Source of the DNA: a virus
DNA: 21,438 nt
IMG/VR virus record: IMGVR_UViG_3300042549_001930
Location: 1 to 21,438 of that record
Reading direction: 5' to 3' (one strand)
A model generated the notes under the pieces. The model saw only the letters and a program-made list of their open reading frames with translations, was not told the DNA's origin and made no database searches. Below are positions 749-21,438 of this stretch, in pieces (the first letter of the stretch is position 1; each line of letters starts with the position of its first letter). The translations under genes and the position numbers were made by a program.

Positions 749-3700
749 CTATTCTGCTTTCTGAATGTTACGTTGTTTTTCGGATAGTTTTCTGAGTTGT
801 TCAAGCTTACCAAAAGCCACACCATCTTTTTGTTTTTGTGTAACAGTCTGGACTGGTACACCTAAGTAACTGTTGATACCTTTGTCTCCGACACGCTGTG
901 CTTGTCCAATAGGTGGTATTATCTGTGTCAAAGCACGAACAAACTTTGATGGGGCGACAGGGTCTCCCGCTTGATTATAACTAAGTTGACCAGTGGCTTG
1001 CAAGAACGGAGCTAACAAAAGAGTAGCACCCGAAAGTTTCTCCTGCTTATCAGTCATAGGTTTGCCTGTGTATAGGTCTTGATTAAACATTGTTTCCAAA
1101 GGAACACGAATACCAGGGTTCAAGTACCCAAGAAGTCTTTTAGGGTCAGTCAGTGAGTCAATTTGATCGTTCACTCTGCTGAACGGCAAATCGGGGTTAA
1201 GGAATTTATCTCCACCAAGACTAATAGCGTTACGCATGTAAGCAGGCATGACAGACATGTCCTCACCCTCTTGAGAGTTCGAAACCATACGCTGATACAT
1301 TAGATACGGCTTGGGGTTAGCCCAGCGGTTAGTAATCTGCAAAGGCAAGTTGCGGCTCATCCATGTCCAGAATGGAACAATGTCTTGCATTGATTCATCC
1401 AGCAACGACTTCTCTGAATAATCAAACAAGTAACGCTTTGTTCTGTTGAACGACTGGCTAGGGTCAAAACCCTTTACAAAAGAATCGTAAGCCAGCATGA
1501 AATGAGCAGAGCCTTCAAGCTTGCCACCAATTTTCTTTGAATAGTTAAGAGCAGCGTTAGAGTTAATTCTAGCGTTGCCTCTAGCCATGAAACTGCTTAG
1601 AGCATCTTGCGTTCTACCGCCACCCATGCCAAGCATCACGCCAATACTGTTTCGTGCAATTTCTTTTTGGGCATCTGGCAAAGTTGCAATAAACGAATCA
1701 ACACTTCCACCACCAGAAAAATGAGTGTCAGCCATACGCCACAACTTAAACCCATCATACATGTTCTTAACATCCGCACCAGCAGCAAACATAGAAAACA
1801 CGTTGCTTATCTCGTTACGCAAATGGAAACCAGGGCTAAGAGTAGCATACGCCTTAAAGAACTGAGTGTATCCGCTCATAAACCTACCAAGGTCATTAAC
1901 AACACCAAGTTGGTTTAATCGCCCAACGCTATTAAGAAGGGTAAGTGCTTCACTGTCACCAACAAGATTGGGGAATCCCTTTTTGTCTATGCGCTTCATG
2001 TCTTTGTATAAGCCCATCTCTTTGGCGGCCTTTTCCCACTCTTTAGAGAACGGTTCAAACACTCTAGTTGTCCATTCAGGTGCACTAGCACCTGCAATGG
2101 CAAGCAACTCACCAGCATGAGTCAATTCTAAATCAATCAACTGCGAATCAGCCATAGCCGCAGCAGCCCATGCCTTGTTAACAGGATCATCAGGTGATTC
2201 AGAAAGCATTTCAAACACACGCTTGTTATCTTTCAACCATTTGTTGTAAGATTCAATTGCTGCAGCCTGCTGAGCAGGAGTAACCTTGCGTCCACCTTTA
2301 GCAGTAGACATGGACTTAAATACATCCATTGTGTCCTTGGCTGGCATTGAAGCAACCAACATGTTAACTTCATCAAGTTGTTGCTGCAAAGAAGCAGCCA
2401 ACTGACGACCATCGTTCAATGCTTCCATAAACTGGTCAACACCACCAGAGGTTACTTCAATCTTGATACGCACTTCTTCAGCCGCACCACTAACCGCTTT
2501 GATAATATCCTCAACAGCCGCTCTTTGTGTGCGCTTATTTTCCAAAGCAGTCTTAACTGTTTTCATAGTTTCATCTCTCAAAGATGGTAGCGTCTTACGA
2601 CCAGTAGCAGGATCAACACGCTTTTCAGTCCACAAAAGACGAGCTTCCTCAGCATCATCAGCCTGAATCTTTCCGAAACCAACGTTGTATCTGTTTTCAG
2701 CCTGAACAGCCTGAGCAGCAGACAACCTAGTATTAGGTGTAGTACCAGGCTCTACAAAAGTACCACCAGGAGCAGACTGTGCAGTAATAGCCTGACCAAA
2801 CTCATCAACAGCAGCAGGTGACGTTGGCAATTCCAACGGAACACCATCAGGACCAACAGGTCCAGCACCTCTAAGTGCTTGCAAACTATCACTAGCAGCC
2901 TGTGCGTCGGCTAGAATTTCTTGCTCAAGTCTAGCAACATTGGTAGGACCAGACAAAGCACCCCTAGCAATTTCAAGTTCTTTAGCAAGTTCATTAGCAT
3001 AGTTTTGCATCGATTCAGCAGAAGCTCTAGTGTTTTTATGCAAAGCAACAACAACATCATTCTCCATCTCGGCAAGTTCCTGAAGATGCTTATACTCTGG
3101 AGTTGATTTAAAAGCCCTATCTAGGTTTGCTCTACGCATCTCAAGATCACGTCCACCAACCTTGTAGCCCTTGTCTAGACGCTCAGACACAGACTTGGGG
3201 GTGCTACGAGCGTTAACTCCCAAAGCAGTTAGTTCGTCCATCTCTTTAAGACCGTCACGACGTGCAACATCAACAAGAGTAGGATGCGTGTTGTCAACCC
3301 AGCGACCAACGCCAACTTCATCAAAAACAGCACCAGCACGCTTGGAACCATTAACAAGAATACTCATCTTCTTTAAAGCAGAAGCTTGAACCTTTGGGTC
3401 CAATGCTCTTTTAGACACCTCAAGAGGTACAAGGTCGGCGTTCAAGCCAGCAACTCTTGCATTGATTCTATCAATTTCATTGTTGAACTTTACAAATGCT
3501 TGTTGGTAAATGTCTCCATCAACAGCAGACACAGACATAGCAAAACCAGATCTACGCTGACCAGATGGCATTCTACGACGAACCGCATCAAAAGCAGCGC
3601 CAGCTGCTTTGTATTGCTGTTCAAGAAGTTTCTTCTCTTGTAGTATTTCACGAATAGAATCATTAACGTTTTCGGAAGTAACAGAAGATCTTACCGAACC

Positions 3701-6700
3701 ACCAACATACAAAGACTCTGCTTCTTCGGGAGTGAAAACAACTTTAGTTCCATTGTCAAATGCAGCATACTCTCCATCAACAGTTTTAAAACCATCAGTA
3801 AAAGTAGAAAGATCATATGCAGCAACATCATTCATGACTTGTACAAGTCTTTCATCACCCTTAGCCTTAGCAGTCATAACACTGTTCGCCTTTTTGTTGT
3901 ATGTGTCAATAATCTTCTTGGCTTGTTCAGCATAAGGAGCAGAAGGGCGTCCAGGGCGTGCAGTCTGACCAGTTATAGGGTTGGCTGCTTTCATTGTTGG
4001 TTCAGCCTTAACCAAATCAACAAACTTGGACTCATTAGGAGTCAACGCAGGAACATTGGCTCTAGCTTTCTGTACCGTGTCAAGCTGCTTCTGAGCAGAC
4101 TTGACTGCAGGAGTTAAACGCTCAATACGGGTAGACTCTGTGTTTGTTAAAGGGCGCTTTCCTTTTTTGCCAGAAGAAACCCAGACTTCTTGTTTTGCAG
4201 CAATAGAATCTTGAACCTCTGCAAGCTTTGCAGTTACATCATCCAGTTTTGATTGAGCAGCAGCAACTGCCTTGTCAGCAGTTTCAATGGCTTTAATCTT
4301 TGGCTCCACAGCCTTGACCTTAGCAAGGAAGTTTGCAGGAACGGCTTTACCCTTGGACAACAGATCAGCTTCTGTTTGAAGAACAGTAGCAGATTCTCTC
4401 GCAGATACAGCATCACGAGTACGCAAAGCAAAGTTATCTGCTTCTGTTTGTGCTTCTTTAGTAGCTGCCTGCCAACGCTCTGAAGTGTGCTGCATAATAC
4501 GCACCTTCATGCTAGGACGAGTCTGTGGTGCGCCTGGGTCACGAAGGAAAGTTTCCATATCCAAATCTTCATCCAACATCTGACCATAACGAGCTTTAGA
4601 TTCTTTCAATGCTTTAATTTTTGTCTGCAAAGTATTCTCTCCACCAACAACTTTAACCATCGATCCACTACCAGACTCGCCAACATACCCGACAGGGGTG
4701 GCGCTTCTTCCTTTAATAGTTGAAGCACCCAAATGCTTTTCAAAGAACGATTTGACAATAGCAGCATCAGCTTCTTCAGCGAACGGAGTCATGTACGTAG
4801 ACTTGGCTCCCTTTCTTTGAACAGGTGCAAGCTCTTTAAGAGCAGCAGTCTTGTCGCCCTTGTAGTTTCTTCCTTCAGGGAAAGCCTGTGTATACCATGG
4901 ATCTACTTTTTCTTTGTAGAAATCATTTTCTAGTTTAGTTATTTCTGAACGAGTTGCACCAGCCTTACGTGCCCTGCCCTTGATTGCTTTTAGTTCCATG
5001 CGGAGACTATAGGCGTCTCCACTTGCTACAGACTTGTTTCCTAAAGCAACTTGGATTGTTTCACGCTCGGCAGAACTCAGTTTGTCCCATTGGTCTTGAA
5101 AAACACGACCAGCAGATACAGAAAGGTCTGGGTTGTTAATAATATCGGAAACAGCCCTTTCAAACTTTTCAAGATTCAAAACACCAATACGTGTAGAAGT
5201 CAAGTTGCTATCAATAATATCAATAAACTTTTGTGAAACATTCTTACTGATACGAGTGAACACTCTTTCACTAGGTGCAATACCAAACGTAGAGAATATT
5301 TCGCTTACAGTATTCCAACGTTTTCCAAGGTCGGAAACAATATGGTAGTCAAACAAAGCACGACCAAGTTCCTCGTTTGTATGTGCAACACTTTGGAACC
5401 ATTCAGGTCGTGTTAAAGAACCACCACTAGTGATTTCTTTAATAGTGTTAAGTGCATCGTCAAGTTCACGGGCAGCAGACAAAGACTCTGTTCCAGATGT
5501 TTTTGCTGCTCTAAGTTGTTTAACCTTTGCACGAGCAGCGGTTAATTTAGCGTCAATTTCAAGAAGCGACTTTGCCGAATATGTCTTTCGTCCAACACCA
5601 GCACCAGTAGCAAAAAACTCTGGTCTATCGTAAGCCTCTTTAGCTAAAGCAGAATATCTATCTATTTCACCCATCAAGTCATTATACGTAATGACGTTAC
5701 TTCCACGAGGTCTTGCGCCAGTAGACTGCGAGAAGTCTCTAACCGCCATAGACTCCACAACATCTTCTCCTGGTTTAAACTCTGGAGTAACATCCAGTCC
5801 TTTATCTCCAGACCAAGGAGCATAACCAGCAGCACCATCGACAGTTTTACCACCAGAAACATTATCGTAATAACCCATCAAGTCTTTAATTGCTTCTTCA
5901 TTTAAGTACGCAACATCATTGTCTGGAATAAACTGAGACAACCAAGGCTTAGACCTTGCATGTGATTCAAACAAACCCCAAGAAATTTCCGTGTCTCCAA
6001 GATTACGAAGAAGATCAGTGTTTCTCATAAGGTTGACAAACTCATCCATTTGATCAATGTTCTCACGCAGCAACTTTGCTTCAGCAATCTTTGGCTTGGT
6101 TTGTGTTTTCCAAATACTACCAGAGTTCTTACGGGCACCACCACCAGCATCTTTAGCTATTTCCGCAGCAATAACTTCAGCCTCGTCCGCTTCCTGCAAG
6201 TTTTTAAGAAGCTTATCCCTAACCGCTACAAGAAACTCTGGAACATTTTCTCCATAGATACGCTCATCATTTAACAAAGTATAGATAGACATACTACGAA
6301 CTTCACTAGAAGAAAGCTCGCCAGTAAAAACCTTTGGAAGATTGTTATTAAACAGGTTGTCATTCATTTTAGACACAGAAGTCTTATTTAATTTTGTGTT
6401 TTTAGTAAGGCGCTGGAAAAGACCACCCTCTTTATTAATTAAATTACGCAAAGCAGTTTGACGAACACGTTCTGCCTTTTCAGCATTCTTAACACCAGCA
6501 GCAGTCTTGTCTACAATACTAGAAACAGCAGTATCAGTAAGCATTCCCTTTTCGCCTATAATACCAAGAATATCTGTGATGTCTCTAGCGTATGTCTGTC
6601 CAGAAATAACACCCTCAAGAACGCTTTCAAGTTGGTTACCAAACTCTAAAACAATTTTAACGTTTTCTTCAGAAGCGGCCAAACGCTCCAAAGCAAGTTT

Positions 6701-8842
6701 ATGTGCAGCATCAGTCTTGTCGGCAATACTTTTAAGTTCAATACCTGTAAGGTCTTTACCTAAAACAGTCGCTTGTCTTTCAAGATCCAAGAAGTCATCC
6801 TGGATGCTATCCAGATGACCAAGTATACCATTTAACAAATACGTAGACTCAGTAGCCTCACGACCCGTATCTTTAAGAACAAGCTTTCCCCCTTTTGTAT
6901 ATGCGTATCCAAACAAATCAACCAAGGTCTTTTTACTTTTATCAAGAGCATTAGCAGCCAACCCAAGTTGGTCTGCACTAATAGTTAAACCACCAGTAAG
7001 GATGTCATTCAAAGCAGCTTCTGTGTCCAAAAGAATCTCTCTTGAACCAACAGCACCAGTGTCACCCAGTAGTTCTTTAATTTCACCACTAAGTTTTGCT
7101 TGGTGTGCAACCAGTGCGTCGTTGAAAGTTAAATAAGCTTTTGAAGATTGCTTATACAAAGCGTTCAAATCACCAGCGATAGAACCAGCAGACTTTTTAA
7201 TGGACTCAAGCATGATCTCGTCAACAAATTCGCCACTCATGTCTATAGCTGCAGCACGTTCCCAAAAACCAGCATCAGCAAGGTGCTTGTGTTTAAACAA
7301 GATACCAGACTCTTTAACAAACTCGTCAACATACCTAGGTGCAACAATGCGGATATCTGTTTCAAAGAAATCACCAATGAAACCACCATCTTTGGCAAGT
7401 TGATTAAGTCTGTCTGTGCTCTTCAAATCATCAACAGTTAACTTGTGACCAAACCAGTTGTCACCCTCTGTCATTGTACGAGTCTTAAAGTTCTTACCAC
7501 CAGCCATAGGGTCCCTGGAATAAATACTATTAAGGTCAGCAGCATGAGGACTGTTGGGGTTAGCACGATAAGCCATTGCAGCGTCTGATTGTATTCTAGG
7601 GAAATAGTTTGTAACGCCATCAAACCCAGGAGAAGTAGGGTCAACTTCTTTCATCGCTGCACCAACACGTGCCTCGTAAGAATCAAAGAATTCTGGTCCC
7701 CACTTTTGTACAGCAGCTTGAATTTCTGGAGTAGCAGTAGCCAACAACTCAGGATTCTCAAGATACTTATAAACTTCCTTAGCGTAACCTTCAAGACCCG
7801 CACCAGCTTCAGTCTCTAAAGTTTTAGCCAACACTTGACGTTCGCTCTGCGCAAGCGTACCCATAAACTGTTTCATAGCTGGAGTAGCAGAAAAATAAGC
7901 AATCAATGCAGTGCTTGTATCTGTGGACAAAGGCTTTCCACTGGCAGTAGCTCCTTTAAGCAAAGCTGTACGGGCAACAAGATGCTCGTTAGGTAAAGTC
8001 CACTTACGAACAAATTCACCCATCTTAGTTTCTGAACCCATCATGCGCATCTTAGCCATAGCGTTATCGCCAAACGCACCTATAGCACCACTGCCTGGGA
8101 TACGCAAACCCATTCTTTCACCGCTAGCAGCATTTAGTTTACCAACTTTAATACGCTTACCTAGCATATACAAACCATGGTTATTAGCACCAAGGTCAGT
8201 AAGTAGGTTTTGATCTTTAATAGCAGCACGACCGAAACGAGCGACAGAAGCAGCAAGAGCTTCGTCGCCGTTGTGCGCAAGAACAGCTTTAGCCAAATCA
8301 AGCTTACCAGCATATCCAGCAAACTTGCCAGCACCAAAAGTTACATAAGTAATAGGGTCAAGAGCAACGTCACCAGCAAAACCAATAGCTCTATCCAGCC
8401 ATTTAGAACCAGTGTCAATATTGAAAGCAGTACCAAAACCAAAAGAAACATCTTTTGCTTGCTTCTTGAAATCACCAAAGGAAGCTTTAGTTTTGTTGTT
8501 ACCATCTACGGCATCACCAAACTCACGCAAACCAGAAATAACAGTACGACCTGGCAAAGCCAAAAGACTAAGAGGTTTAAGAACACCCTGCACCACAGAG
8601 TTACCAAGAACACTACCAAGGACACCACCCTGTGGAGACTTGGAAGTTTTGCCCTGACCAATAGCGTCAATAGCGCTCTTCAAATCAAAGTTAGTTGACA
8701 TCATATTAGACGCCTGACGCCCATAAGCCACACCAGTAGCACTAGTGGTCTTGTTTACTGGGGTGAACCCAGGTTGTGTTTGCTTCTGTTCACGCATGGC
8801 CTTAGCCATTGCGTAACGCTGGTCATTATAAGGATTAGCCAT
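749..8842 (-). CDS. Giant internal virion (ejection) protein, 2697 residues
   Basis: This single uninterrupted frame is probably a virion protein ejected with the DNA, in the place of T7 gp16. The N-terminus is Met/Gln-rich and followed by a Gly/Leu/Val-rich stretch around residues 73-106. A segment with N-Y-F-P-R-I lies near residue 410. Long Ala/Lys/Glu/Gln helical or coiled-coil stretches occur near 550-600, 1510-1555 and 1960-1990. The region from about 2300 to the end is the most domain-like. It includes FDYSEKSLLDES followed by IVPFWTWMSRNLPLQ near 2475-2500, resembling the C-terminal part of large phage polyvalent or internal proteins. I see no lysozyme or transglycosylase signature and no recognisable RNA polymerase motifs, so no enzymatic role is assigned. 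The start has no clear Shine-Dalgarno sequence (CTTACAGTAT before ATG). It follows three smaller ejection-type genes and precedes the endolysin. Confidence 0.8.
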   Translation of the reverse strand: MANPYNDQRYAMAKAMREQKQTQPGFTPVNKTTSATGVAYGRQASNMMSTNFDLKSAIDAIGQGKTSKSPQGGVLGSVLGNSVVQGVLKPLSLLALPGRTVISGLREFGDAVDGNNKTKASFGDFKKQAKDVSFGFGTAFNIDTGSKWLDRAIGFAGDVALDPITYVTFGAGKFAGYAGKLDLAKAVLAHNGDEALAASVARFGRAAIKDQNLLTDLGANNHGLYMLGKRIKVGKLNAASGERMGLRIPGSGAIGAFGDNAMAKMRMMGSETKMGEFVRKWTLPNEHLVARTALLKGATASGKPLSTDTSTALIAYFSATPAMKQFMGTLAQSERQVLAKTLETEAGAGLEGYAKEVYKYLENPELLATATPEIQAAVQKWGPEFFDSYEARVGAAMKEVDPTSPGFDGVTNYFPRIQSDAAMAYRANPNSPHAADLNSIYSRDPMAGGKNFKTRTMTEGDNWFGHKLTVDDLKSTDRLNQLAKDGGFIGDFFETDIRIVAPRYVDEFVKESGILFKHKHLADAGFWERAAAIDMSGEFVDEIMLESIKKSAGSIAGDLNALYKQSSKAYLTFNDALVAHQAKLSGEIKELLGDTGAVGSREILLDTEAALNDILTGGLTISADQLGLAANALDKSKKTLVDLFGYAYTKGGKLVLKDTGREATESTYLLNGILGHLDSIQDDFLDLERQATVLGKDLTGIELKSIADKTDAAHKLALERLAASEENVKIVLEFGNQLESVLEGVISGQTYARDITDILGIIGEKGMLTDTAVSSIVDKTAAGVKNAEKAERVRQTALRNLINKEGGLFQRLTKNTKLNKTSVSKMNDNLFNNNLPKVFTGELSSSEVRSMSIYTLLNDERIYGENVPEFLVAVRDKLLKNLQEADEAEVIAAEIAKDAGGGARKNSGSIWKTQTKPKIAEAKLLRENIDQMDEFVNLMRNTDLLRNLGDTEISWGLFESHARSKPWLSQFIPDNDVAYLNEEAIKDLMGYYDNVSGGKTVDGAAGYAPWSGDKGLDVTPEFKPGEDVVESMAVRDFSQSTGARPRGSNVITYNDLMGEIDRYSALAKEAYDRPEFFATGAGVGRKTYSAKSLLEIDAKLTAARAKVKQLRAAKTSGTESLSAARELDDALNTIKEITSGGSLTRPEWFQSVAHTNEELGRALFDYHIVSDLGKRWNTVSEIFSTFGIAPSERVFTRISKNVSQKFIDIIDSNLTSTRIGVLNLEKFERAVSDIINNPDLSVSAGRVFQDQWDKLSSAERETIQVALGNKSVASGDAYSLRMELKAIKGRARKAGATRSEITKLENDFYKEKVDPWYTQAFPEGRNYKGDKTAALKELAPVQRKGAKSTYMTPFAEEADAAIVKSFFEKHLGASTIKGRSATPVGYVGESGSGSMVKVVGGENTLQTKIKALKESKARYGQMLDEDLDMETFLRDPGAPQTRPSMKVRIMQHTSERWQAATKEAQTEADNFALRTRDAVSARESATVLQTEADLLSKGKAVPANFLAKVKAVEPKIKAIETADKAVAAAQSKLDDVTAKLAEVQDSIAAKQEVWVSSGKKGKRPLTNTESTRIERLTPAVKSAQKQLDTVQKARANVPALTPNESKFVDLVKAEPTMKAANPITGQTARPGRPSAPYAEQAKKIIDTYNKKANSVMTAKAKGDERLVQVMNDVAAYDLSTFTDGFKTVDGEYAAFDNGTKVVFTPEEAESLYVGGSVRSSVTSENVNDSIREILQEKKLLEQQYKAAGAAFDAVRRRMPSGQRRSGFAMSVSAVDGDIYQQAFVKFNNEIDRINARVAGLNADLVPLEVSKRALDPKVQASALKKMSILVNGSKRAGAVFDEVGVGRWVDNTHPTLVDVARRDGLKEMDELTALGVNARSTPKSVSERLDKGYKVGGRDLEMRRANLDRAFKSTPEYKHLQELAEMENDVVVALHKNTRASAESMQNYANELAKELEIARGALSGPTNVARLEQEILADAQAASDSLQALRGAGPVGPDGVPLELPTSPAAVDEFGQAITAQSAPGGTFVEPGTTPNTRLSAAQAVQAENRYNVGFGKIQADDAEEARLLWTEKRVDPATGRKTLPSLRDETMKTVKTALENKRTQRAAVEDIIKAVSGAAEEVRIKIEVTSGGVDQFMEALNDGRQLAASLQQQLDEVNMLVASMPAKDTMDVFKSMSTAKGGRKVTPAQQAAAIESYNKWLKDNKRVFEMLSESPDDPVNKAWAAAAMADSQLIDLELTHAGELLAIAGASAPEWTTRVFEPFSKEWEKAAKEMGLYKDMKRIDKKGFPNLVGDSEALTLLNSVGRLNQLGVVNDLGRFMSGYTQFFKAYATLSPGFHLRNEISNVFSMFAAGADVKNMYDGFKLWRMADTHFSGGGSVDSFIATLPDAQKEIARNSIGVMLGMGGGRTQDALSSFMARGNARINSNAALNYSKKIGGKLEGSAHFMLAYDSFVKGFDPSQSFNRTKRYLFDYSEKSLLDESMQDIVPFWTWMSRNLPLQITNRWANPKPYLMYQRMVSNSQEGEDMSVMPAYMRNAISLGGDKFLNPDLPFSRVNDQIDSLTDPKRLLGYLNPGIRVPLETMFNQDLYTGKPMTDKQEKLSGATLLLAPFLQATGQLSYNQAGDPVAPSKFVRALTQIIPPIGQAQRVGDKGINSYLGVPVQTVTQKQKDGVAFGKLEQLRKLSEKQRNIQKAE

Positions 8843-8860
8843 ATACTGTAAGACTTTTCG

Positions 8861-9913
8861 TTACTTAGACGAAGCAATGAACTTCATGATCATTTTCATG
8901 GCGTCAGTAGTGGGAGTAGCCCCACTCTGCCTAGCATAATCCATTTGACCCTCACGGACAGCCTGCTCACGCTGCTTGGCAGCATTAGCACTTCCTTCCA
9001 TGTCTAGCATTGCTTGCATGGCGTCATCATATTTTTTGTTAGCAGCCTTATTGTAGCCAACCCCACGAGATGACCCAGCTTTTTTAGTAATGTTTTTAAC
9101 AGCCTTACCAAACCCTTTAGCATCTCCTCCACGATTATTTGAATACTTCAAAGAATCAGAACCAGACTTATCCAAAACACCAGTTAAATCAGATACAGAT
9201 ATATCATCAACAGGGTTATTTTTAAAGTAAGAACGAGCACGATTCAACCCAAGAGCACCTCGTCCTTTTGAACTTTCCTCATCAAACCATTTTAAAACAT
9301 CAGCAGTCTTTATGCGCTTGCCCTCTTCAGTGGCGGAACTACCTCGTCCCAAACCTTCTCTAGCAGCATTAACTTTGTATTGTGCATCTCCATAACCTTT
9401 AACTTTAGGTACCAAATCTTCTTGAAGTTTCCTAATGTACTGCTCATTAATTGACGAAAGAGGAACAGTAGAAGTGTTGTACAGCTCCGTAGGGTCAGGT
9501 ATACCAGCTTTTTGAGTTGCGGTCTTATTTTTAGAACTAGAAGAACCAGTGCTAGTTCCAGTGTATTCTTTATACAACTCGCCAGCGACACCCTTTAAAT
9601 CAGCAACCTGAAAACCACCCAAATCTATACCTGGCGCAGCAATAGAATCAATATAACTACTAATTTGAAACTTATCTGCACCACTAGTTATCTTGGAAAT
9701 AACATCCTGAATAATAGGATTTTCAGACTGCGAATACCTAGACCAGTAACTACCAGCACTAGGACCAGACTGCTCAGCAGTACGTGGATCATAAGCACCC
9801 GCCATTATAGCAAGCAACTGACTGTCCATGTTGTTTAAAACACCACTAAGGTTTTTGTTTCCACCTCTAGCAGCAGCCATAAACGCCATCATCTGCATCT
9901 CTTGATCGGTCAT
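8861..9913 (-). CDS. Putative internal virion protein, 350 residues
   Basis: I do not recognise a named family. The protein begins MTDQEMQMMAFMAAARGG, with a helical, Met/Ala-rich N-terminus. It has a low-complexity Thr/Ser/Lys linker near residues 117-132 (TGTSTGSSSSKNKTATQK), a central charged region and a Lys/Ala/Gln-rich helical C-terminus ending in FIASSK. No signal peptide, catalytic motif or Cys cluster is visible. Its ATG overlaps the stop of the upstream gene as TAATG, so translation is probably coupled. It lies between two other internal-protein candidates and the giant gene, in the region corresponding to T7 gp14-gp16. A role as a core or ejection protein is inferred from that position and composition; a scaffold-like or tail-assembly function is also possible. 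Confidence 0.65.
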   Translation of the reverse strand: MTDQEMQMMAFMAAARGGNKNLSGVLNNMDSQLLAIMAGAYDPRTAEQSGPSAGSYWSRYSQSENPIIQDVISKITSGADKFQISSYIDSIAAPGIDLGGFQVADLKGVAGELYKEYTGTSTGSSSSKNKTATQKAGIPDPTELYNTSTVPLSSINEQYIRKLQEDLVPKVKGYGDAQYKVNAAREGLGRGSSATEEGKRIKTADVLKWFDEESSKGRGALGLNRARSYFKNNPVDDISVSDLTGVLDKSGSDSLKYSNNRGGDAKGFGKAVKNITKKAGSSRGVGYNKAANKKYDDAMQAMLDMEGSANAAKQREQAVREGQMDYARQSGATPTTDAMKMIMKFIASSK

Positions 9914-11021: not shown

Positions 11022-11471
11022 CTATGCTCCTAAAAACGGTTTCCAAGCAGTCAAAGACGCTGCTGTATTTGCAATATTACTTTGTTTCTCAAAATCCAAA
11101 GCTTCCAACTCAGACTGGTAAGCAGCCTGGTCATAAGCATCACCAAGTTTAGACTGTTGAATTTCACCAGCAGTATCCATCTCGCTATTGTTTATCGACT
11201 CGGTTTTCTGATTAGCAAAATCAGTTAAACCCTTTTTATAGACACCAGACTGAACACCAGGACCAGCCAAGCCACGCTTAGTAAAACTACCAACAACCCC
11301 AGGGGCTGCCTGTTCAAACTGTTTGTTAATATCAAACACCTTGCGGTTGCCACGCTGTTGAGATAGAAACTGACTATAGGCAGATTGGGCTGCTTTGGCG
11401 CCATACTGGCTGCCAGCTGCCCGCTTACGCTTGCCATACCCTAGGTAGTCAAAATTACTTGTGTCGCTCAT
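11022..11471 (-). CDS. Putative internal virion protein, 149 residues
   Basis: I do not recognise a family. The protein begins MSDTSNFDYLGYGKRKRAAG and has a basic, Ala/Gln/Tyr-rich helical first half with a QYGAKAAQSAYSQFLSQQRG segment. A Gly/Pro-containing middle (APGVVGSFTKRGLAGPGVQSG) is followed by an acidic helical C-terminus ending in WKPFLGA. The start at 11471 has AGAGGA at 11477-11482. The stop lies two bases before the next gene's ATG, and that gene's ribosome site sits inside this gene's last codons. The size and first place in the block of internal proteins recall T7 gp14, a small membrane-associated ejection protein, but this is an analogy of position and not of sequence. Confidence 0.65.
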   Translation of the reverse strand: MSDTSNFDYLGYGKRKRAAGSQYGAKAAQSAYSQFLSQQRGNRKVFDINKQFEQAAPGVVGSFTKRGLAGPGVQSGVYKKGLTDFANQKTESINNSEMDTAGEIQQSKLGDAYDQAAYQSELEALDFEKQSNIANTAASLTAWKPFLGA

Positions 11472-11510
11472 ACAGATCCTCTATATAGTGTTTATTGTTA
11501 CGGATTGGCA
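11472..11510 (-). promoter_or_regulatory. Intergenic gap with ribosome site and possible promoter-like motif
   Basis: This 39-base gap separates the fibre genes from the ejection-protein genes and is one of the longest non-coding gaps in the operon. Read on the minus strand it contains GTAACAA (11501-11495), TATAGAG (11485-11479) and the ribosome site AGAGGA before the ATG at 11471. A similar pair of motifs occurs upstream of the scaffold gene. A dedicated late promoter here is possible, but the spacing between the motifs differs, so the evidence is weak. Confidence 0.3.
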
Positions 11511-12305
11511 TTATGCAGGTCCTATATCTTCTACGCTAAATTTCCATGCAATAGGGTCACGGACTGCAGCGCCGTAATAATAAACACCCATTGCTGATGA
11601 GTTGTGTCTGAGTTTTCTTGTCACAGAACCAGACGAAGCAAATGTTTCAACATAATCAAGAAAACCAGTTTGATAGTTAACTCCACCAGCAACAGCAAAA
11701 TAAGTAAAATATTCACGAATAACATTATTGCTAGAATCAGTTATATGAGTACTCATAGGTCCAACGCCATCATTAACAATCAAACCAGTTGCAAAATAAC
11801 GATAACGGCGACCTGCAACAGCAGTAAAAGTTACACTAATAAGGTCTGTGGTTGGGGTTATATATCCAGTTCCTGCAGCAAGTGTTGCTAGCGTTACAAG
11901 CCCCCAAGCCGTATTCCAGGGGCGTGAAGCCATCGTTGCAATCTGAGTTGTATTAGTACCAGCAGAAGCAGTAGGTGCTGTAGGTGTACCAGTCAATGCA
12001 GGTGAAGCAATATTGGCTTTCAAGTTTAAAGCAGTCTGTTGCGCAGTGGAAACAGGCTTGGCTGTGTCTGCAGTGTTGTCGACAGACCCAAGACCAACCA
12101 TTGATTTGGTTATTCCGCTAACCGTTCCCGTAAAAGTAGGGTTGTTAGCTGACACATAGTTCACCACCCAAGCAGAACCATTCCAAACATATTCAACGTC
12201 CGTATCAGTCTCGTAGATGTGTTGACCTTCGTACGGGGCTGTAGGGCGTGTTGTTGATGTGCATACACCTGGGCGTATACCGCTTGCGTTGTTACTAATA
12301 GCCAT
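11511..12305 (-). CDS. Tail fibre / receptor-binding protein, paralogue of the next upstream gene
   Basis: This 264-residue protein is a probable adhesin. Residues 13-49 (GVCTSTTRPTAPYEGQHIYE followed by TDTDVEYVWNGSAWV) match the N-terminal region of its neighbour and probably form the attachment domain. Residues 70-97 contain VGLGSVDNTADTAKPVSTAQ, a shaft motif widespread in phage fibres. Residues 99-134 repeat the neighbour's shaft almost exactly (ASPALTGTPTAPTASAGTNT and onward to AWG). The tip (about 135-258) differs strongly but keeps V-x-F-T-A-V-x-G-R near 158-166. The end is SVEDIGPA. The gene overlaps the upstream paralogue by TAATG at 12305. Tandem duplication followed by divergence of the tip would give a phage two binding specificities; which surface molecule is bound cannot be read from sequence. 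Confidence 0.75.
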   Translation of the reverse strand: MAISNNASGIRPGVCTSTTRPTAPYEGQHIYETDTDVEYVWNGSAWVVNYVSANNPTFTGTVSGITKSMVGLGSVDNTADTAKPVSTAQQTALNLKANIASPALTGTPTAPTASAGTNTTQIATMASRPWNTAWGLVTLATLAAGTGYITPTTDLISVTFTAVAGRRYRYFATGLIVNDGVGPMSTHITDSSNNVIREYFTYFAVAGGVNYQTGFLDYVETFASSGSVTRKLRHNSSAMGVYYYGAAVRDPIAWKFSVEDIGPA

Positions 12306-13072
12306 TATGCAGGCCCTACATCTTCAACCATTAAAGCGTTCGCATAGCCACCAGTATCAGCATAAACTTGACCAGTGCCAGCACCCATTGCACATTGAAC
12401 ACTGATTGTTGTGGAACCACTCGCTCCGCTAAAGTAGGTGAACAATGTTGGAGAGTGCCATAGATTGATGGTTGGTGACATATAATAATCTGCTCCCTGT
12501 ATTCTTGTAGAACCATTGTAAATGGCACAGTTAATATATGTTGCACTACTTGCACTTTGAAGGTATAACTCTGTTGTCACTTTATACATTCTCCCTGACA
12601 CCGCTGTGAAGTTTACAGAAAAAACCGTAACAGGAGGGCTATTAACTATGCTTGTTACGGTCGTTTTTTTAACATATCCAACCTGACCCCAAGCAACATT
12701 CCATGGTCGTGAAGCCATAGTTGCTATCTGTGTTGTGTTTGTACCAGCAGAAGCAGTAGGTGCCGTAGGCGTACCACTTAATGCTGGAGATGCCAATTTT
12801 GCGTAACCTTGACCCACAACATAAGCAGTAGTGGCAACCTGTGTTGTATTTGTGTCAACTGCAGCCGTAGGAGCAGCAGGTACACCAGTAAAAGTAGGTG
12901 ACGCAGACGATGCATAGTTATTAACCCAAGCAGAACCATTCCAAACAAACTGCAAGTTTGTATCTGTCTCGTATATATGTTGGCCTGCGTATGGTGAAGC
13001 TGGGCGTGTACTGCTTGTGCATACACCCCACTTGATCATTGACGATGCACCTATTTGCTGTGAAATACCCAT
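12305..13072 (-). CDS. Tail fibre / receptor-binding protein, first of two tandem paralogues
   Basis: This 255-residue protein shares its N-terminal domain (residues 16-50, with PYAGQHIYETDTN and VWNGSAWV) and shaft with the downstream gene. It has two shaft units typical of phage fibres, at about 57-85 (SPTFTGVPAAPTAAVDTNTT) and 95-122 (SPALSGTPTAPTASAGTNTT). The tip begins after AWG at 129 and contains VNFTAVSGRMYKV near 153-165. The C-terminus is MVEDVGPA, nearly the same as in the paralogue. The start lies two bases after the stop of the collar gene. By my hand alignment the shared shaft DNA of the two genes differs at about 17 of 107 positions, so the duplication is not very recent. An inverted repeat lies at the start of the tip region. 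Confidence 0.75.
   Translation of the reverse strand: MGISQQIGASSMIKWGVCTSSTRPASPYAGQHIYETDTNLQFVWNGSAWVNNYASSASPTFTGVPAAPTAAVDTNTTQVATTAYVVGQGYAKLASPALSGTPTAPTASAGTNTTQIATMASRPWNVAWGQVGYVKKTTVTSIVNSPPVTVFSVNFTAVSGRMYKVTTELYLQSASSATYINCAIYNGSTRIQGADYYMSPTINLWHSPTLFTYFSGASGSTTISVQCAMGAGTGQVYADTGGYANALMVEDVGPA
12624..12661. repeat. Inverted repeat with flanking T-tracts inside a fibre gene
   Basis: ACCGTAACA at 12624-12632 pairs perfectly with TGTTACGGT at 12653-12661 across a 20-base loop. On the plus strand it is followed by CG and seven T (12664-12670). On the minus strand the second arm runs directly into a T-tract (TTTTTT, counting the arm's last base). It therefore resembles a bidirectional terminator, although it lies inside the fibre gene at about residues 138-150. 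Confidence 0.55.
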
Positions 13073-16516: not shown

Positions 16517-18141
16517 TATGCTTTAACCTTTCTAGGATTATACTTTAATGTGAAGCTATTGACACCCCACGTTTGTGCTGGCGAACCAACAAATTCTAAC
16601 TGTACAGACTTTGCAAGCCCAACACTTCGACCATTAACAACCTGGGATCCAGGGTTCGCAGCACCCCAAGTAGCAGAACCCCAAAGAGAATAACCCCACA
16701 ACATACTACCACCAGACGCTGGAATATCAATAACGTACTGTTTCATTTCGCCATCTTCAGCTTCTTCATAGTTGCCATAAACAAAAACATTCAACTGTGA
16801 AGCAGAAGGTGTTTGCTTAACAACCAAACTAGGACGTCTAAACATTTTATTTTGAGCATACGAACCAGCATCAAACCAGCGAGTACGATAACGACTAGTG
16901 AACTGATTATCTGTACCAGTAACATTGTCCAAAGCATTGCCGTAGTTGTCTACGGTCAATGTGTACGGCTGTGTAGGGTGAGCAACAACATGTTTAGTTG
17001 TGCCGTCTGTCTGTGTGAAAGTTAAACCAGCAGAAATACCACAACCATCGTAAGAAGAAAACATTAGCCAAGCACCAGATTTGTTTACTGTATTATCATA
17101 TACAAAAGAAACGGTCGGCGTGGTTGCGCTTGTTGTTTCACTGTATGGAACAGAAACCCAAACACGACGATTAACATAGTTAACGTTAATGGCGTTAGTT
17201 GCTGCAGAGTTAACATAACCATTAACTAAAGCGGGACGCAAAGGTTGAAACAAGTCAACAATACCATTACCATTGTAAAGCATTAAACCATCAGGGTGTG
17301 AATAGAAATAAACACCAGATTCTGTAGTTGCAACAGAACCAGGATTTACGGCACCAACAGAACGAGAAACTTCAACAACTTGAAAAGTGTCTGAATCGTA
17401 ACCAAAGATAGCAAACACTGCGTCCTCTTTGAAAACAACAATATGACCAGAGAAAACAGCAAGAGCTGTAATTCCTACAGATCCAGTATTAATATCGATG
17501 TAGTCATCAGCGGCCCAGTTACCAGGAAGGTTGGGGTGTGACCATCTGATACGGTTGGGGTATGCTACGCCGTTTTCGTTTGTGTTAGCAGCAAAGATTT
17601 TACCTGCATGAGTAACAACGTGATTAGCTTTGGGAAAGAACACTGCAGGCAAAGTAGGGGCAGTATAAGAGTTTTGAAACGTAGGACCAGAAGCTGTCAA
17701 AGCAGTCTTGGTGGTTCCATCCCACTTGTAAGACACACTACCAGGTCCAGTAGAAATATAAAGATCCTCACCCCAAGAAGCAAAAGAAGCACCAAAAGAA
17801 GTAGTCACAGGAATAGCAAGACTTGCATAAGAAGAACAGTTGCTAGACCAAAACACGTCACCATTAGTTCCACCACCAGCAGAAGAATAAGCAGTAGACA
17901 ACATCAACCTATGTGTAGAAGCAAAAAACGAATACAAACCAGCAGGGTTCCAGTTAGTAGGGGTAATAGCAGTAGTGTTAGTACGGCGCATAGCGCCACG
18001 ACTAAAAATACCACCACGAGGATCAATCTCGACATTAAGCATTTTAGGTGACTCGTTAGGAGCCAACTGAAACTGGTCAGCACGAAGATTCAACCCACCA
18101 GTGAAATCGTCCTGACGAAGAACTCTAAGATTAGTAGCCAT
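16516..18141 (-). CDS. Tail nozzle / tail tubular protein B-like
   Basis: This 541-residue protein probably forms the distal tail tube of a short-tailed virion. The N-terminus ([20 protein letters not shown], then [18 protein letters not shown]) is the usual opening of nozzle and stabilisation proteins. The body consists of repeated beta-strand segments with [24 protein letters not shown] and [11 protein letters not shown], consistent with a beta-propeller. The C-terminal part contains [13 protein letters not shown], where other nozzles also read the sample range of residues for tube contacts. T7 gp12 is longer, so this is a compact version. It overlaps the adaptor gene upstream by TAATG, the same gene pairing as T7 genes 11 and 12. 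The fibre genes follow at once. Confidence 0.8.
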
Positions 18142-18839
18142 TACTGACCTAGCGTTCTACCAAGAGACTGCAACCAGTAATGCTCAGACGGACGTGCAGT
18201 ACCCCTAGACATAATCATAGGACGATGACCAGAAGCACGCATCATATCCTTACGAGCAAGAGAAACAGCCTCCTCAAAGGACTGTTTGTATATGCTAGCC
18301 ATCTCATTATCTTCCTGACGTTTGTAAGCCTGAGAGATAGCATAATAGGCAATAGCAAGATGTAAACGCTCATCACAATCAACCTCTAAGGTTGTTGTGA
18401 CAAAAGGAGAATAACTAGGTTTACGATATCCACGAACAGTCAAAGCATACGCAGTGTCGGGTTTAGGATACAGTTTTATTGTTTCGCTCCACTCAGCAAA
18501 AAACAAAGGACGACTAGGCGTGTCAAAAGAACCATGCCAAACATTCTCGGCTTCATCCAAAGAAATAACAGACAGTCTGTTTCCACTAGTTGTGGTGTCC
18601 ACAATTGAGACTATTTCACGCATGTCGCCATTACCAATGGCGGAAATGGCGTAGTCACGCTGACTGGCGATCGTGCTGAGCGCATAGGTTGTTTCAAGAA
18701 ACGGCCAACGGCGTTCAAGATTGATTACACGCTGGAACCCATCTTTAAGATACTGATACACCAAAGCAGTTGGCAAGTCAGCAGCGTCAAGATCTAAAAT
18801 TTCATAAACAAAATCTTTAAGTTCAGCAGTTGTGCTCAT
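18141..18839 (-). CDS. Head-tail adaptor / tail tubular protein A-like
   Basis: This 232-residue protein begins with a helical segment (TTAELKDFVYEILDLDAADL, then LVYQYLKDGFQRVINLERRW) typical of podovirus adaptors, in which short helices line the ring below the portal. A beta-rich middle (RDYAISAIGNGDMREIVSIV; LSVISLDEAENVW; TIKLYPKPDTAYALTVRGYR) precedes a second helical bundle (DERLHLAIAYYAISQAYKRQ, then MASIYKQSFEEAVSLARKDM). The length is close to T7 gp11 (about 196) and related proteins. The start overlaps the upstream gene as ATGA and the stop overlaps the nozzle gene as TAATG. Its place between head and nozzle genes supports the call; the sequence match is to the general adaptor pattern rather than to one characterised homologue. 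Confidence 0.8.
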   Translation of the reverse strand: MSTTAELKDFVYEILDLDAADLPTALVYQYLKDGFQRVINLERRWPFLETTYALSTIASQRDYAISAIGNGDMREIVSIVDTTTSGNRLSVISLDEAENVWHGSFDTPSRPLFFAEWSETIKLYPKPDTAYALTVRGYRKPSYSPFVTTTLEVDCDERLHLAIAYYAISQAYKRQEDNEMASIYKQSFEEAVSLARKDMMRASGHRPMIMSRGTARPSEHYWLQSLGRTLGQ

Positions 18840-19054
18840 TCAGTTTCTTTCTTTGTGTTTGCACGTAGATGCCCGATACAGTATTCTGTGCCTTTGGCTT
18901 TAGGGCCTTCACAGGTGTCATCGTTGGCTATGCAACGTTGACGACCAACATAGGGCAGTCCGCCAATTTGTAGTTGGGAAGTAGCAGACTGGTTTACAGG
19001 CAGGCTACCACCAACAAGGGTTCCATATAGGGCATTAACAGTTTTAAAGGTCAT
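18836..19054 (-). CDS. Small Cys/His protein, possible zinc-binding, 72 residues
   Basis: I do not recognise a named family. Residues 38-64 contain C41, C48, C59 and H62 in a C-x6-C-x10-C-x2-H arrangement (within RCIANDDTCEG and TEYCIGHLR), which could bind one zinc ion. The N-terminus (TFKTVNALYGTLVGGSLPVN) is Gly/Ser-rich with little charge, and the C-terminus is charged. It lies between head and adaptor genes and overlaps the adaptor by four bases (ATGA), so its translation probably controls entry of ribosomes into the adaptor. The start codon at 19054 and the AGGG before it lie in or beside a 13-of-14-base-pair hairpin, and the AGGG is only about one base from the ATG, so initiation is likely weak or regulated. 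The function could be in virion joining or in regulation. Confidence 0.65.
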   Translation of the reverse strand: MTFKTVNALYGTLVGGSLPVNQSATSQLQIGGLPYVGRQRCIANDDTCEGPKAKGTEYCIGHLRANTKKETE

Positions 19055-19066
19055 ACCCTATATGGA
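19022..19066 (-). promoter_or_regulatory. Inverted repeat / RNA hairpin over the start of the Cys/His gene
   Basis: The arms are 19022-19035 and 19053-19066, complementary at 13 of 14 positions (mismatch 19033 with 19055), with a 17-base loop. In the transcript the 5' arm reads TCCATATAGGGTAT. It contains the only Shine-Dalgarno-like bases, and the start codon ATG (19054-19052) straddles the inner end of the stem. The 3' arm codes for part of N-A-L-Y-G. There is no T-tract, so this is not a terminator. It may limit translation of this gene and the coupled adaptor gene, or be a DNA operator. Confidence 0.6.
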
Positions 19067-19074
19067 TTTGTTAC

Positions 19075-19539
19075 TTAACGGTAATTCTTGTTTCCAGCTG
19101 GCGGAGCAGCCTTCTTGTACCCAGCAGGTTTCTTTGTTACACGACTAGTTGGTGCAGAACCTTGCTTTGCTGATGTGGCCTTACGGCTTGCAGCAGCCGC
19201 ACGACCTTGCTTAGCCATCGTCATCATCTTGTCATCAGAAGCCTGCACTGAAGCAGACACACGAGATGCTACTTTGGCTTTTGCAGAAGCAACAGCTTTT
19301 GGACCAGAAGTACGAGAAACTACACGACTACTAGATGATGCCGCTGCTTTCTTTTTAGCTGAATCAAGACTTTCTGGAGAAACACCTCTAGATGTTGGAC
19401 CTTTATTCTTGTTTGCTGGGTTGTAAGGAGAATCCTTTTTCCAAGGAGTACCCTTAGGGACGTTCCAGTTTCCTTTGTAGCCCTTAGGAACTGGCATATA
19501 TGCCTTGTTGTTTCCTGGACCATTTTTCTTTGCAGCCAT
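19075..19539 (-). CDS. Basic Lys/Ala/Ser-rich protein with SRV motifs, 154 residues
   Basis: The start is at 19539 (MAAKKNGPGNNK), chosen because AGGAG lies at 19545-19549. An in-frame ATG at 19680 would overlap the capsid gene and its terminator. The protein is strongly basic and low in hydrophobic residues, so it is probably largely disordered. The first part has V-P-K-G-Y-K-G and V-P-K-G-T-P-W. The rest carries recurring Ser-Arg pairs at 50-51, 71-72, 75-76, 92-93, 118-119 and 132-133, several as T-S-R-V/G or S-R-V. PTSRVTKK (130-137) closely resembles PTSRVTNKK in the 368-residue internal protein. Its position after the capsid gene allows a role as a capsid-associated or DNA-binding internal protein. 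I know no characterised homologue. A terminator lies just upstream, so its expression should be below that of capsid unless a further promoter exists. Confidence 0.65.
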   Translation of the reverse strand: MAAKKNGPGNNKAYMPVPKGYKGNWNVPKGTPWKKDSPYNPANKNKGPTSRGVSPESLDSAKKKAAASSSSRVVSRTSGPKAVASAKAKVASRVSASVQASDDKMMTMAKQGRAAAASRKATSAKQGSAPTSRVTKKPAGYKKAAPPAGNKNYR

Positions 19540-19559: not shown

Positions 19560-19598
19560 AATTAAAAATACTTAAAAGAGGGGGGCTTGCGCCCCCCA
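19560..19598 (-). terminator. Intrinsic terminator downstream of the major capsid gene
   Basis: On the minus strand GGGGGGC and GCCCCCC (19597-19580) form a perfect seven-pair stem closed by a GCAA loop, a GNRA tetraloop. It is followed by TCTTTTAAGTATTTTT. It begins 16 bases after the capsid stop. A terminator here is well known in T7-like phages (T-phi after gene 10) and sets capsid expression above that of the tail genes. Read-through is probably needed for the downstream genes. Confidence 0.85.
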
Positions 19599-21380: not shown

Positions 21381-21438
21381 ATTTTCTCCAGAGTCCCTAG
21401 GGTTGCTCTATAGTAGTAGTTTTTTGTTACATTTGTGT
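21381..21438 (-). promoter_or_regulatory. Upstream region of the scaffold gene with possible phage promoter
   Basis: This 58-base stretch to the window edge contains, on the minus strand, GTAACAA (21430-21424), TATAGAG (21412-21406), the palindrome CCCTAGGG (21402-21395) and the scaffold ribosome site. CTACTATAGAG is loosely like the core of a T7-type promoter (CACTATAGGG), and TACTAT could also serve as a host -10 element, so the type of promoter is uncertain. The presence of a promoter here is reasonable because capsid and scaffold genes usually have their own, but sequence support is limited. Confidence 0.35.

What the first reader, a model, noticed from the sequence alone, without database searches (positions are those of the whole stretch)
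19022..19066. Long hairpin covering the start codon of a small Cys/His gene that is coupled to the adaptor gene
Seen: arms of 14 bases, 13 paired, enclose the ATG at the stem/loop border and bury the only Shine-Dalgarno-like AGGG. The gene then overlaps the adaptor by ATGA. Inference: unfolding of the hairpin could gate synthesis of the Cys/His protein and, through coupling, of the adaptor. The protein itself, with a possible zinc site, could bind the hairpin as an autoregulator. The second arm lies in coding sequence (N-A-L-Y-G), so the symmetry is kept despite protein constraints.
Basis: partly seen in the sequence, partly recalled or inferred. Interest (0 to 1): 0.6.

Follow-up and report, generated by a model that had tools for sequence, protein, structure and literature searches.

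The report
Conserved hairpin hiding a start codon
In a group of uncultured phages, messenger RNA folds into a selected hairpin over the start codon of a small virion-region gene, probably so that the gene is read only from a transcript that begins right at it, a known trick of phage T4 in a new setting.

Summary
The hairpin is real. It makes this start the least accessible of 16 in the window (19.5 versus 0.9-7.7 kcal/mol). In relatives sharing AGGGTATGA the two arms covary beyond a phylogenetic null, so in that clade it is a selected RNA structure. It is clade-limited: three relatives with nearly the same protein, and the wider family, lack it.

AGGG lies one base from ATG and is not a usable Shine-Dalgarno. 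Autoregulation by the Cys/His protein is unsupported: the Cys/His motif is conserved where the hairpin is absent, and no second hairpin copy was found.

It looks like a compact promoter giving near-leaderless mRNA. Best model: as in T4 gene e, read-through mRNA is silenced and mRNA starting at the element is translated. The promoter step is inferred.

The parts
19053..19066 (-). 5' (upstream, mostly non-coding) arm of the RNA hairpin, UCCAUAUAGGGUAU; ends in the A and U of the start codon
   Evidence: covariation
19022..19035 (-). 3' arm of the hairpin, AUGCCCUAUAUGGA, over codons N-A-L-Y-G
19052..19054 (-). ATG of the small gene, at the stem/loop border
18836..19054 (-). 72-aa gene with C-x6-C-x10-C-x2-H motif; no Pfam, PHROGs or NCBIfam match
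18141..18839 (-). adaptor gene (SU10_adaptor, PF24175), overlaps the small gene by ATGA
19070..19074 (-). GTAAC of the repeated start-associated element (GTAACAAATCCATATAGGGT-ATG); candidate compact promoter
19075..19539 (-). Lys/Ala-rich ORF directly upstream; its stop codon abuts GTAAC with no terminator between
19572..19597 (-). intrinsic-terminator-like GGGGGGCGCAAGCCCCCCTCTTTT after the major capsid gene, upstream of the Lys/Ala-rich ORF
   Evidence: sequence
21426..21430 (-). GTAAC element before the scaffold gene (GTAAC-N15-TAGAGC)
11497..11501 (-). GTAAC element before the 149-aa gene that starts at 11471
8860..8864 (-). GTAAC element before the 2697-aa gene that starts at 8842

Best explanation
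A start-codon hairpin in the sense RNA of a small virion-module gene, kept by selection in one clade of uncultured phages. SHOWN by computation: the pairing, its sense-RNA character, its covariation, and that it buries the start on any transcript that comes from upstream. SHOWN as a pattern: its upstream arm lies inside a repeated element (GTAAC-N15-17-ATG) that precedes about five genes per genome, which as a class lack a Shine-Dalgarno. INFERRED: the element is a compact promoter whose transcripts begin at or within a few bases of the ATG, so they lack the upstream arm and are translated as near-leaderless mRNA, whereas mRNA reading through from the capsid/Lys-Ala-rich genes carries both arms and is silent for this gene and, by coupling, partly for the adaptor. 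This is the logic of T4 gene e.
For: Fold z -4.6 on the sense strand only. Start-region opening energy 19.5 kcal/mol for this gene versus 0.9-7.7 for 15 others in the window; in 18 strong-hairpin relatives the mean is 15.3 on long RNA but 6.8 if the RNA starts at -4. Covariation against sequences simulated on the tree: excess 23.7 paired cells (sd 3.6, 0 of 1000) in the model alignment, 14.7 (sd 2.8) on rows needing no gaps, 15.7 (sd 3.6) in a worst-case gapless register; slid registers give -9.2, -3.4 and +6.8. Tyr-wobble pair A-U/G-C changed at least twice; Gly-wobble pair is U-A, A-U, G-C or G-U. G-U wobbles exceed A-C 18 to 3, pointing to sense RNA. GTAAC is the most enriched of 1024 pentamers at its place, 39 genes versus 3.6 expected, mostly 20-22 nt from ATG, or 19-21 nt from TAGAGC before the scaffold gene. 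GTAAC genes have weak anti-SD pairing, mean -1.8 versus -4.7, P 2.5e-7. In several relatives a terminator ends just before GTAAC. Strong hairpin and adjacent terminator never co-occur: 20 hairpin only, 13 terminator only, 38 neither, 0 both. Relatives' early region encodes a sigma-70 region-4 protein. T4 gene e precedent: PMC3014915.
Against: No transcript ends are known; the element is not a recognisable sigma-70 promoter, and its TA-rich part lies closer to the ATG than a usual -10 box would for a leaderless gene. No phage single-subunit RNA polymerase was found, though that search had no positive control. Hairpin versus terminator is not significant after allowing for kinship. Many relatives have an abutting upstream ORF, no terminator and no strong hairpin, so the hairpin is not the only solution.
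Confidence: 0.45

Rival explanations
1. Translational coupling: the hairpin keeps the small gene closed unless ribosomes translating the Lys/Ala-rich ORF stop next to it and melt the upstream arm. It would link small gene and adaptor to translation of the ORF before them.
For: In strong-hairpin relatives with enough upstream sequence the upstream ORF ends 17-25 nt before the ATG, next to the arm, sometimes with the stop codon inside GTAAC.
Against: Weak-hairpin relatives have the same ORF spacing; there is no usable Shine-Dalgarno for re-initiation; the GTAAC element also stands right after terminators where nothing upstream is translated.
Confidence: 0.25
2. The pairing is mostly a by-product: TATAGGG is fixed by the GTAAC start element and CCCTATA by Leu-Tyr codons, and the long stem has no role.
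For: TATAG also occurs in GTAAC elements of other genes, and the A/T-L-Y-G codons are conserved without the hairpin. Three close relatives and most of the family lack the stem.
Against: Silent third bases and non-coding partner bases covary beyond a tree-based null, and 5000 of 5000 arm swaps pair worse than the native arms.
Confidence: 0.12
3. Autoregulatory operator: the Cys/His protein binds the hairpin and represses itself, or a host or phage protein or temperature opens it.
For: The protein has a plausible C-C-C-H metal site.
Against: The motif is invariant where the hairpin is absent; single hairpin per genome; no family match, model too poor to judge (pLDDT 45); no Rfam match.
Confidence: 0.08
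4. DNA operator: the inverted repeat flanking the start is bound by a dimeric repressor of the promoter.
For: Arm centres are 31 bp apart, about three helical turns (coordinates); the arms flank the putative transcription start.
Against: G-U over A-C bias (18:3) and one- or two-base bulges in relatives keep RNA pairing but spoil half-site symmetry.
Confidence: 0.05

Closest known systems
T4 gene e (lysozyme) start-site hairpin, with the soc, 49 and I-TevI hairpins (PMC3014915)
   Same: Helix sequesters the start region on long transcripts; its 5' arm overlaps a late promoter region; pairing predicted in relatives.
   Different: T4 hides a real Shine-Dalgarno and uses TATAAATA late promoters; here no usable Shine-Dalgarno, an unknown GTAAC element, a virion-module gene and an unrelated uncultured phage group. 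Promoter and long transcripts are not demonstrated here.
Start-associated sequences (SAS/ESAS) of cluster K mycobacteriophages (PMC3203893)
   Same: A repeated asymmetric motif placed immediately upstream of several phage start codons; function not settled in that paper.
   Different: SAS is GGGATAGGAGCCC and lies at the start site itself; here GTAAC lies about 20 nt upstream and its genes lack Shine-Dalgarno sites.
Leaderless gene starts, common in Actinobacteria (PMC3160421, PMC4633059; from abstracts and general knowledge)
   Same: Start codons without Shine-Dalgarno and with a promoter-like element close by.
   Different: GTAAC and its spacing do not match the usual TANNNT signal; transcription starts are unknown.

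Membership tests
T4 gene e type start-site hairpin | helix sequesters the start codon or Shine-Dalgarno in long RNA | tested here: met
   (start codon; there is no functional Shine-Dalgarno)
T4 gene e type start-site hairpin | pairing maintained by compensatory change | tested here: met
   within one clade
T4 gene e type start-site hairpin | promoter inside or at the 5' arm gives RNA lacking that arm | tested here: inconclusive
   GTAAC element pattern; no transcript data
T4 gene e type start-site hairpin | long transcript exists and is poorly translated | not testable with these tools
   needs RNA and reporter data
Cluster K SAS | GGGATAGGAGCCC next to the start codon | tested here: not met
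   sequences carry GTAAC-N15-17-ATG instead
Known structured RNA (Rfam) | covariance-model match | tested here: not met
   none at E<=1
Autoregulatory RNA-binding protein operator | operator kept wherever the protein is kept | tested here: not met
   hairpin absent in L006, L008-L010 and the wider family
Autoregulatory RNA-binding protein operator | protein binds the hairpin | not testable with these tools
   needs a binding assay
T7-like promoter | phage single-subunit RNA polymerase encoded | tested here: inconclusive
   PF00940 not found in 18 related records, but no positive control rang

The most novel reading that the evidence does not exclude
GTAAC-N15-17-start is a new compact late promoter, perhaps read with the phage's own sigma region-4 protein, that launches near-leaderless virion mRNAs; at one of these starts a covarying hairpin overlaps the promoter and shuts out read-through messages, in lineages where a terminator does not.
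Probability: 0.3. Interest if true: 0.65.

Novelty: new variant of a known kind. Interest (0 to 1): 0.45.

Why it matters
It extends the T4 gene e logic to an uncultured phage group whose late starts seem to lack Shine-Dalgarno sites. It also hands over a sharply defined, testable element (GTAAC-N15-17-ATG) for late transcription in phages whose regulation has, as far as I found, not been studied.

Tried and rejected
T7-like promoter: the GTAAC to TATAG distance varies (7, 11 and 13 nt in the window) and no such polymerase was found. Autoregulation: protein and hairpin do not track each other. Rfam, Pfam, PHROGs, NCBIfam and PDB sequence searches of the small protein gave nothing useful; AlphaFold pLDDT 45, so no fold search was run. 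No relative of the small protein in GTDB genomes or in the annotated phage collection. Second hairpin copy in the genomes: none. Kinship-corrected test of hairpin versus terminator: too few independent pairs. My first terminator finder missed long-loop terminators (L006, L010) and was widened. The tally used a score cut of 16, so L006, L010 and L020 (15.4-15.8) count there as without terminator; their terminators are visible.

Full report
OBSERVATION. The 72-aa gene lies on the minus strand, 18836-19054, and overlaps the adaptor gene (PF24175 SU10 adaptor, 18141-18839) by ATGA. On the sense RNA the single 'mismatch' is U-G, so all 14 pairs form; the fold beats 200 of 200 shuffles (z -4.59), while the opposite strand is unremarkable. 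The window's other genes have start regions that open for 0.9-7.7 kcal/mol; this one needs 19.5.

RELATIVES. The protein alone retrieves 59 related viral loci and a profile matches 334, of which the best 80 are held; the adaptor retrieves 24. I compared 76 distinct start regions. Strong hairpins occur in the window's closest relatives (L002-L005, L007) and in many 'MSKQLAHTLYG' relatives (L011-L016, L148-L159, L162, L163, L167). Partial ones occur in L070, L072, L073, L077, L161 and L165. L006, L008/L009 and L010, with proteins 88-92% identical to the window's, lack the upstream arm, and so does the wider family.

COVARIATION. Within the AGGGTATGA clade, native arms pair better than arms swapped between species in 5000 of 5000 trials (-15.6 versus -13.5 kcal/mol). 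In a gap-free set of eight, 92.9% of cells pair, three pairs show two-sided changes, and slid controls fall to 21-52% (that set was chosen for having no bulge). To allow for kinship I simulated each column independently on a tree built from downstream DNA: the excess of paired cells is 23.7 (sd 3.6) in the model alignment, 14.7 (sd 2.8) in rows needing no gaps and 15.7 (sd 3.6) in a worst-case gapless register, never reached in 1000 simulations; slid registers gave -9.2, -3.4 and +6.8. The positive value of one slid register (P 0.02) shows that the null is not perfect. The changes sit at the silent third bases of the Tyr and Gly codons and their non-coding partners. G-U outnumber A-C cells 18 to 3 (rows are related), as expected of selection on sense RNA and not on DNA symmetry. 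A covariance model finds one such hairpin per genome.

THE ELEMENT UNDERNEATH. The upstream arm lies in GTAACAAATCCATATAGGGT-ATG. GTAAC recurs in the window before the scaffold gene, the 149-aa gene and the 2697-aa gene, and in related genomes before a small Cys-rich gene, the scaffold gene, this gene and the large internal-protein region. At this position GTAAC is the most over-represented of all pentamers (39 of 637 genes, 3.6 expected). Its distance to ATG is mostly 20-22 nt; before the scaffold gene, which has a leader and a Shine-Dalgarno, the same distance leads to TAGAGC. GTAAC genes as a class lack Shine-Dalgarno sites (P 2.5e-7). In several relatives the element directly follows an intrinsic terminator, leaving little more than 20 bases for any promoter. 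Inference: the element is a promoter and RNA starts at about the ATG, or at TAGAGC for the scaffold gene. A near relative carries a sigma-70 region-4 protein (PF04545, above cut-off) and a transglycosylase-like protein of the kind known from Actinobacteria, so an actinobacterial host, where leaderless starts are common, is a reasonable guess. The element is not a classical sigma-70 promoter, and no T7-type polymerase was detected (without a positive control).

MECHANISM. In L006, L008 and L010 the capsid gene ends about 75 nt before the small gene with a terminator between, and the hairpin is weak. In strong-hairpin relatives a Lys/Ala-rich ORF intervenes, ends 17-25 nt before the ATG, and no terminator separates the two. 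Strong hairpin and adjacent terminator never co-occur (20 hairpin only, 13 terminator only, 38 neither, 0 both), though kinship leaves too few independent cases for significance, and many relatives have neither. The simplest reading is insulation: RNA reading through from upstream is closed at this start, RNA beginning at the element lacks the arm and is open (mean opening 15.3 versus 6.8 kcal/mol). T4 gene e works this way, and relatives of T4 keep a late promoter in the sequence that encodes the 5' strand (PMC3014915). The main rival is translational coupling to the Lys/Ala-rich ORF.

VERDICT. A real, selected, clade-limited RNA structure. It works like the T4 gene e hairpin; whether it is one depends on transcript ends that cannot be computed. 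The wider lead is the GTAAC start element.

Noticed in passing
window 19070-19074, 21426-21430, 11497-11501, 8860-8864 (- strand) and related genomes: Repeated GTAAC-N15-17-start element before about five genes per genome, whose genes as a class lack Shine-Dalgarno sites; candidate compact late promoter.
   Followed up: yes
window 11488-11503 and 11572-11587: A 16-nt inverted repeat, 94% complementary with 68 nt between, has the GTAAC element of the 11471 gene in one arm.
   Followed up: no
window 12613-12672 (- strand): Terminator-like CGTAACA...TGTTACGG followed by a run of T, inside a tail-fibre-like gene.
   Followed up: no
G002, minus strand of the oriented record, 28036-28968: Early-region protein of a near relative has a sigma-70 region-4 domain (PF04545) in its N-terminal half.
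   Followed up: partly
window 19075-19539; L011 upstream of the small gene: Variable Lys/Ala-rich low-complexity ORFs, one or two, between capsid and small gene, absent in L006, L008 and L010.
   Followed up: partly
window 749-8842: 2697-aa internal-virion-like protein in the late module; not analysed for domains.
   Followed up: no
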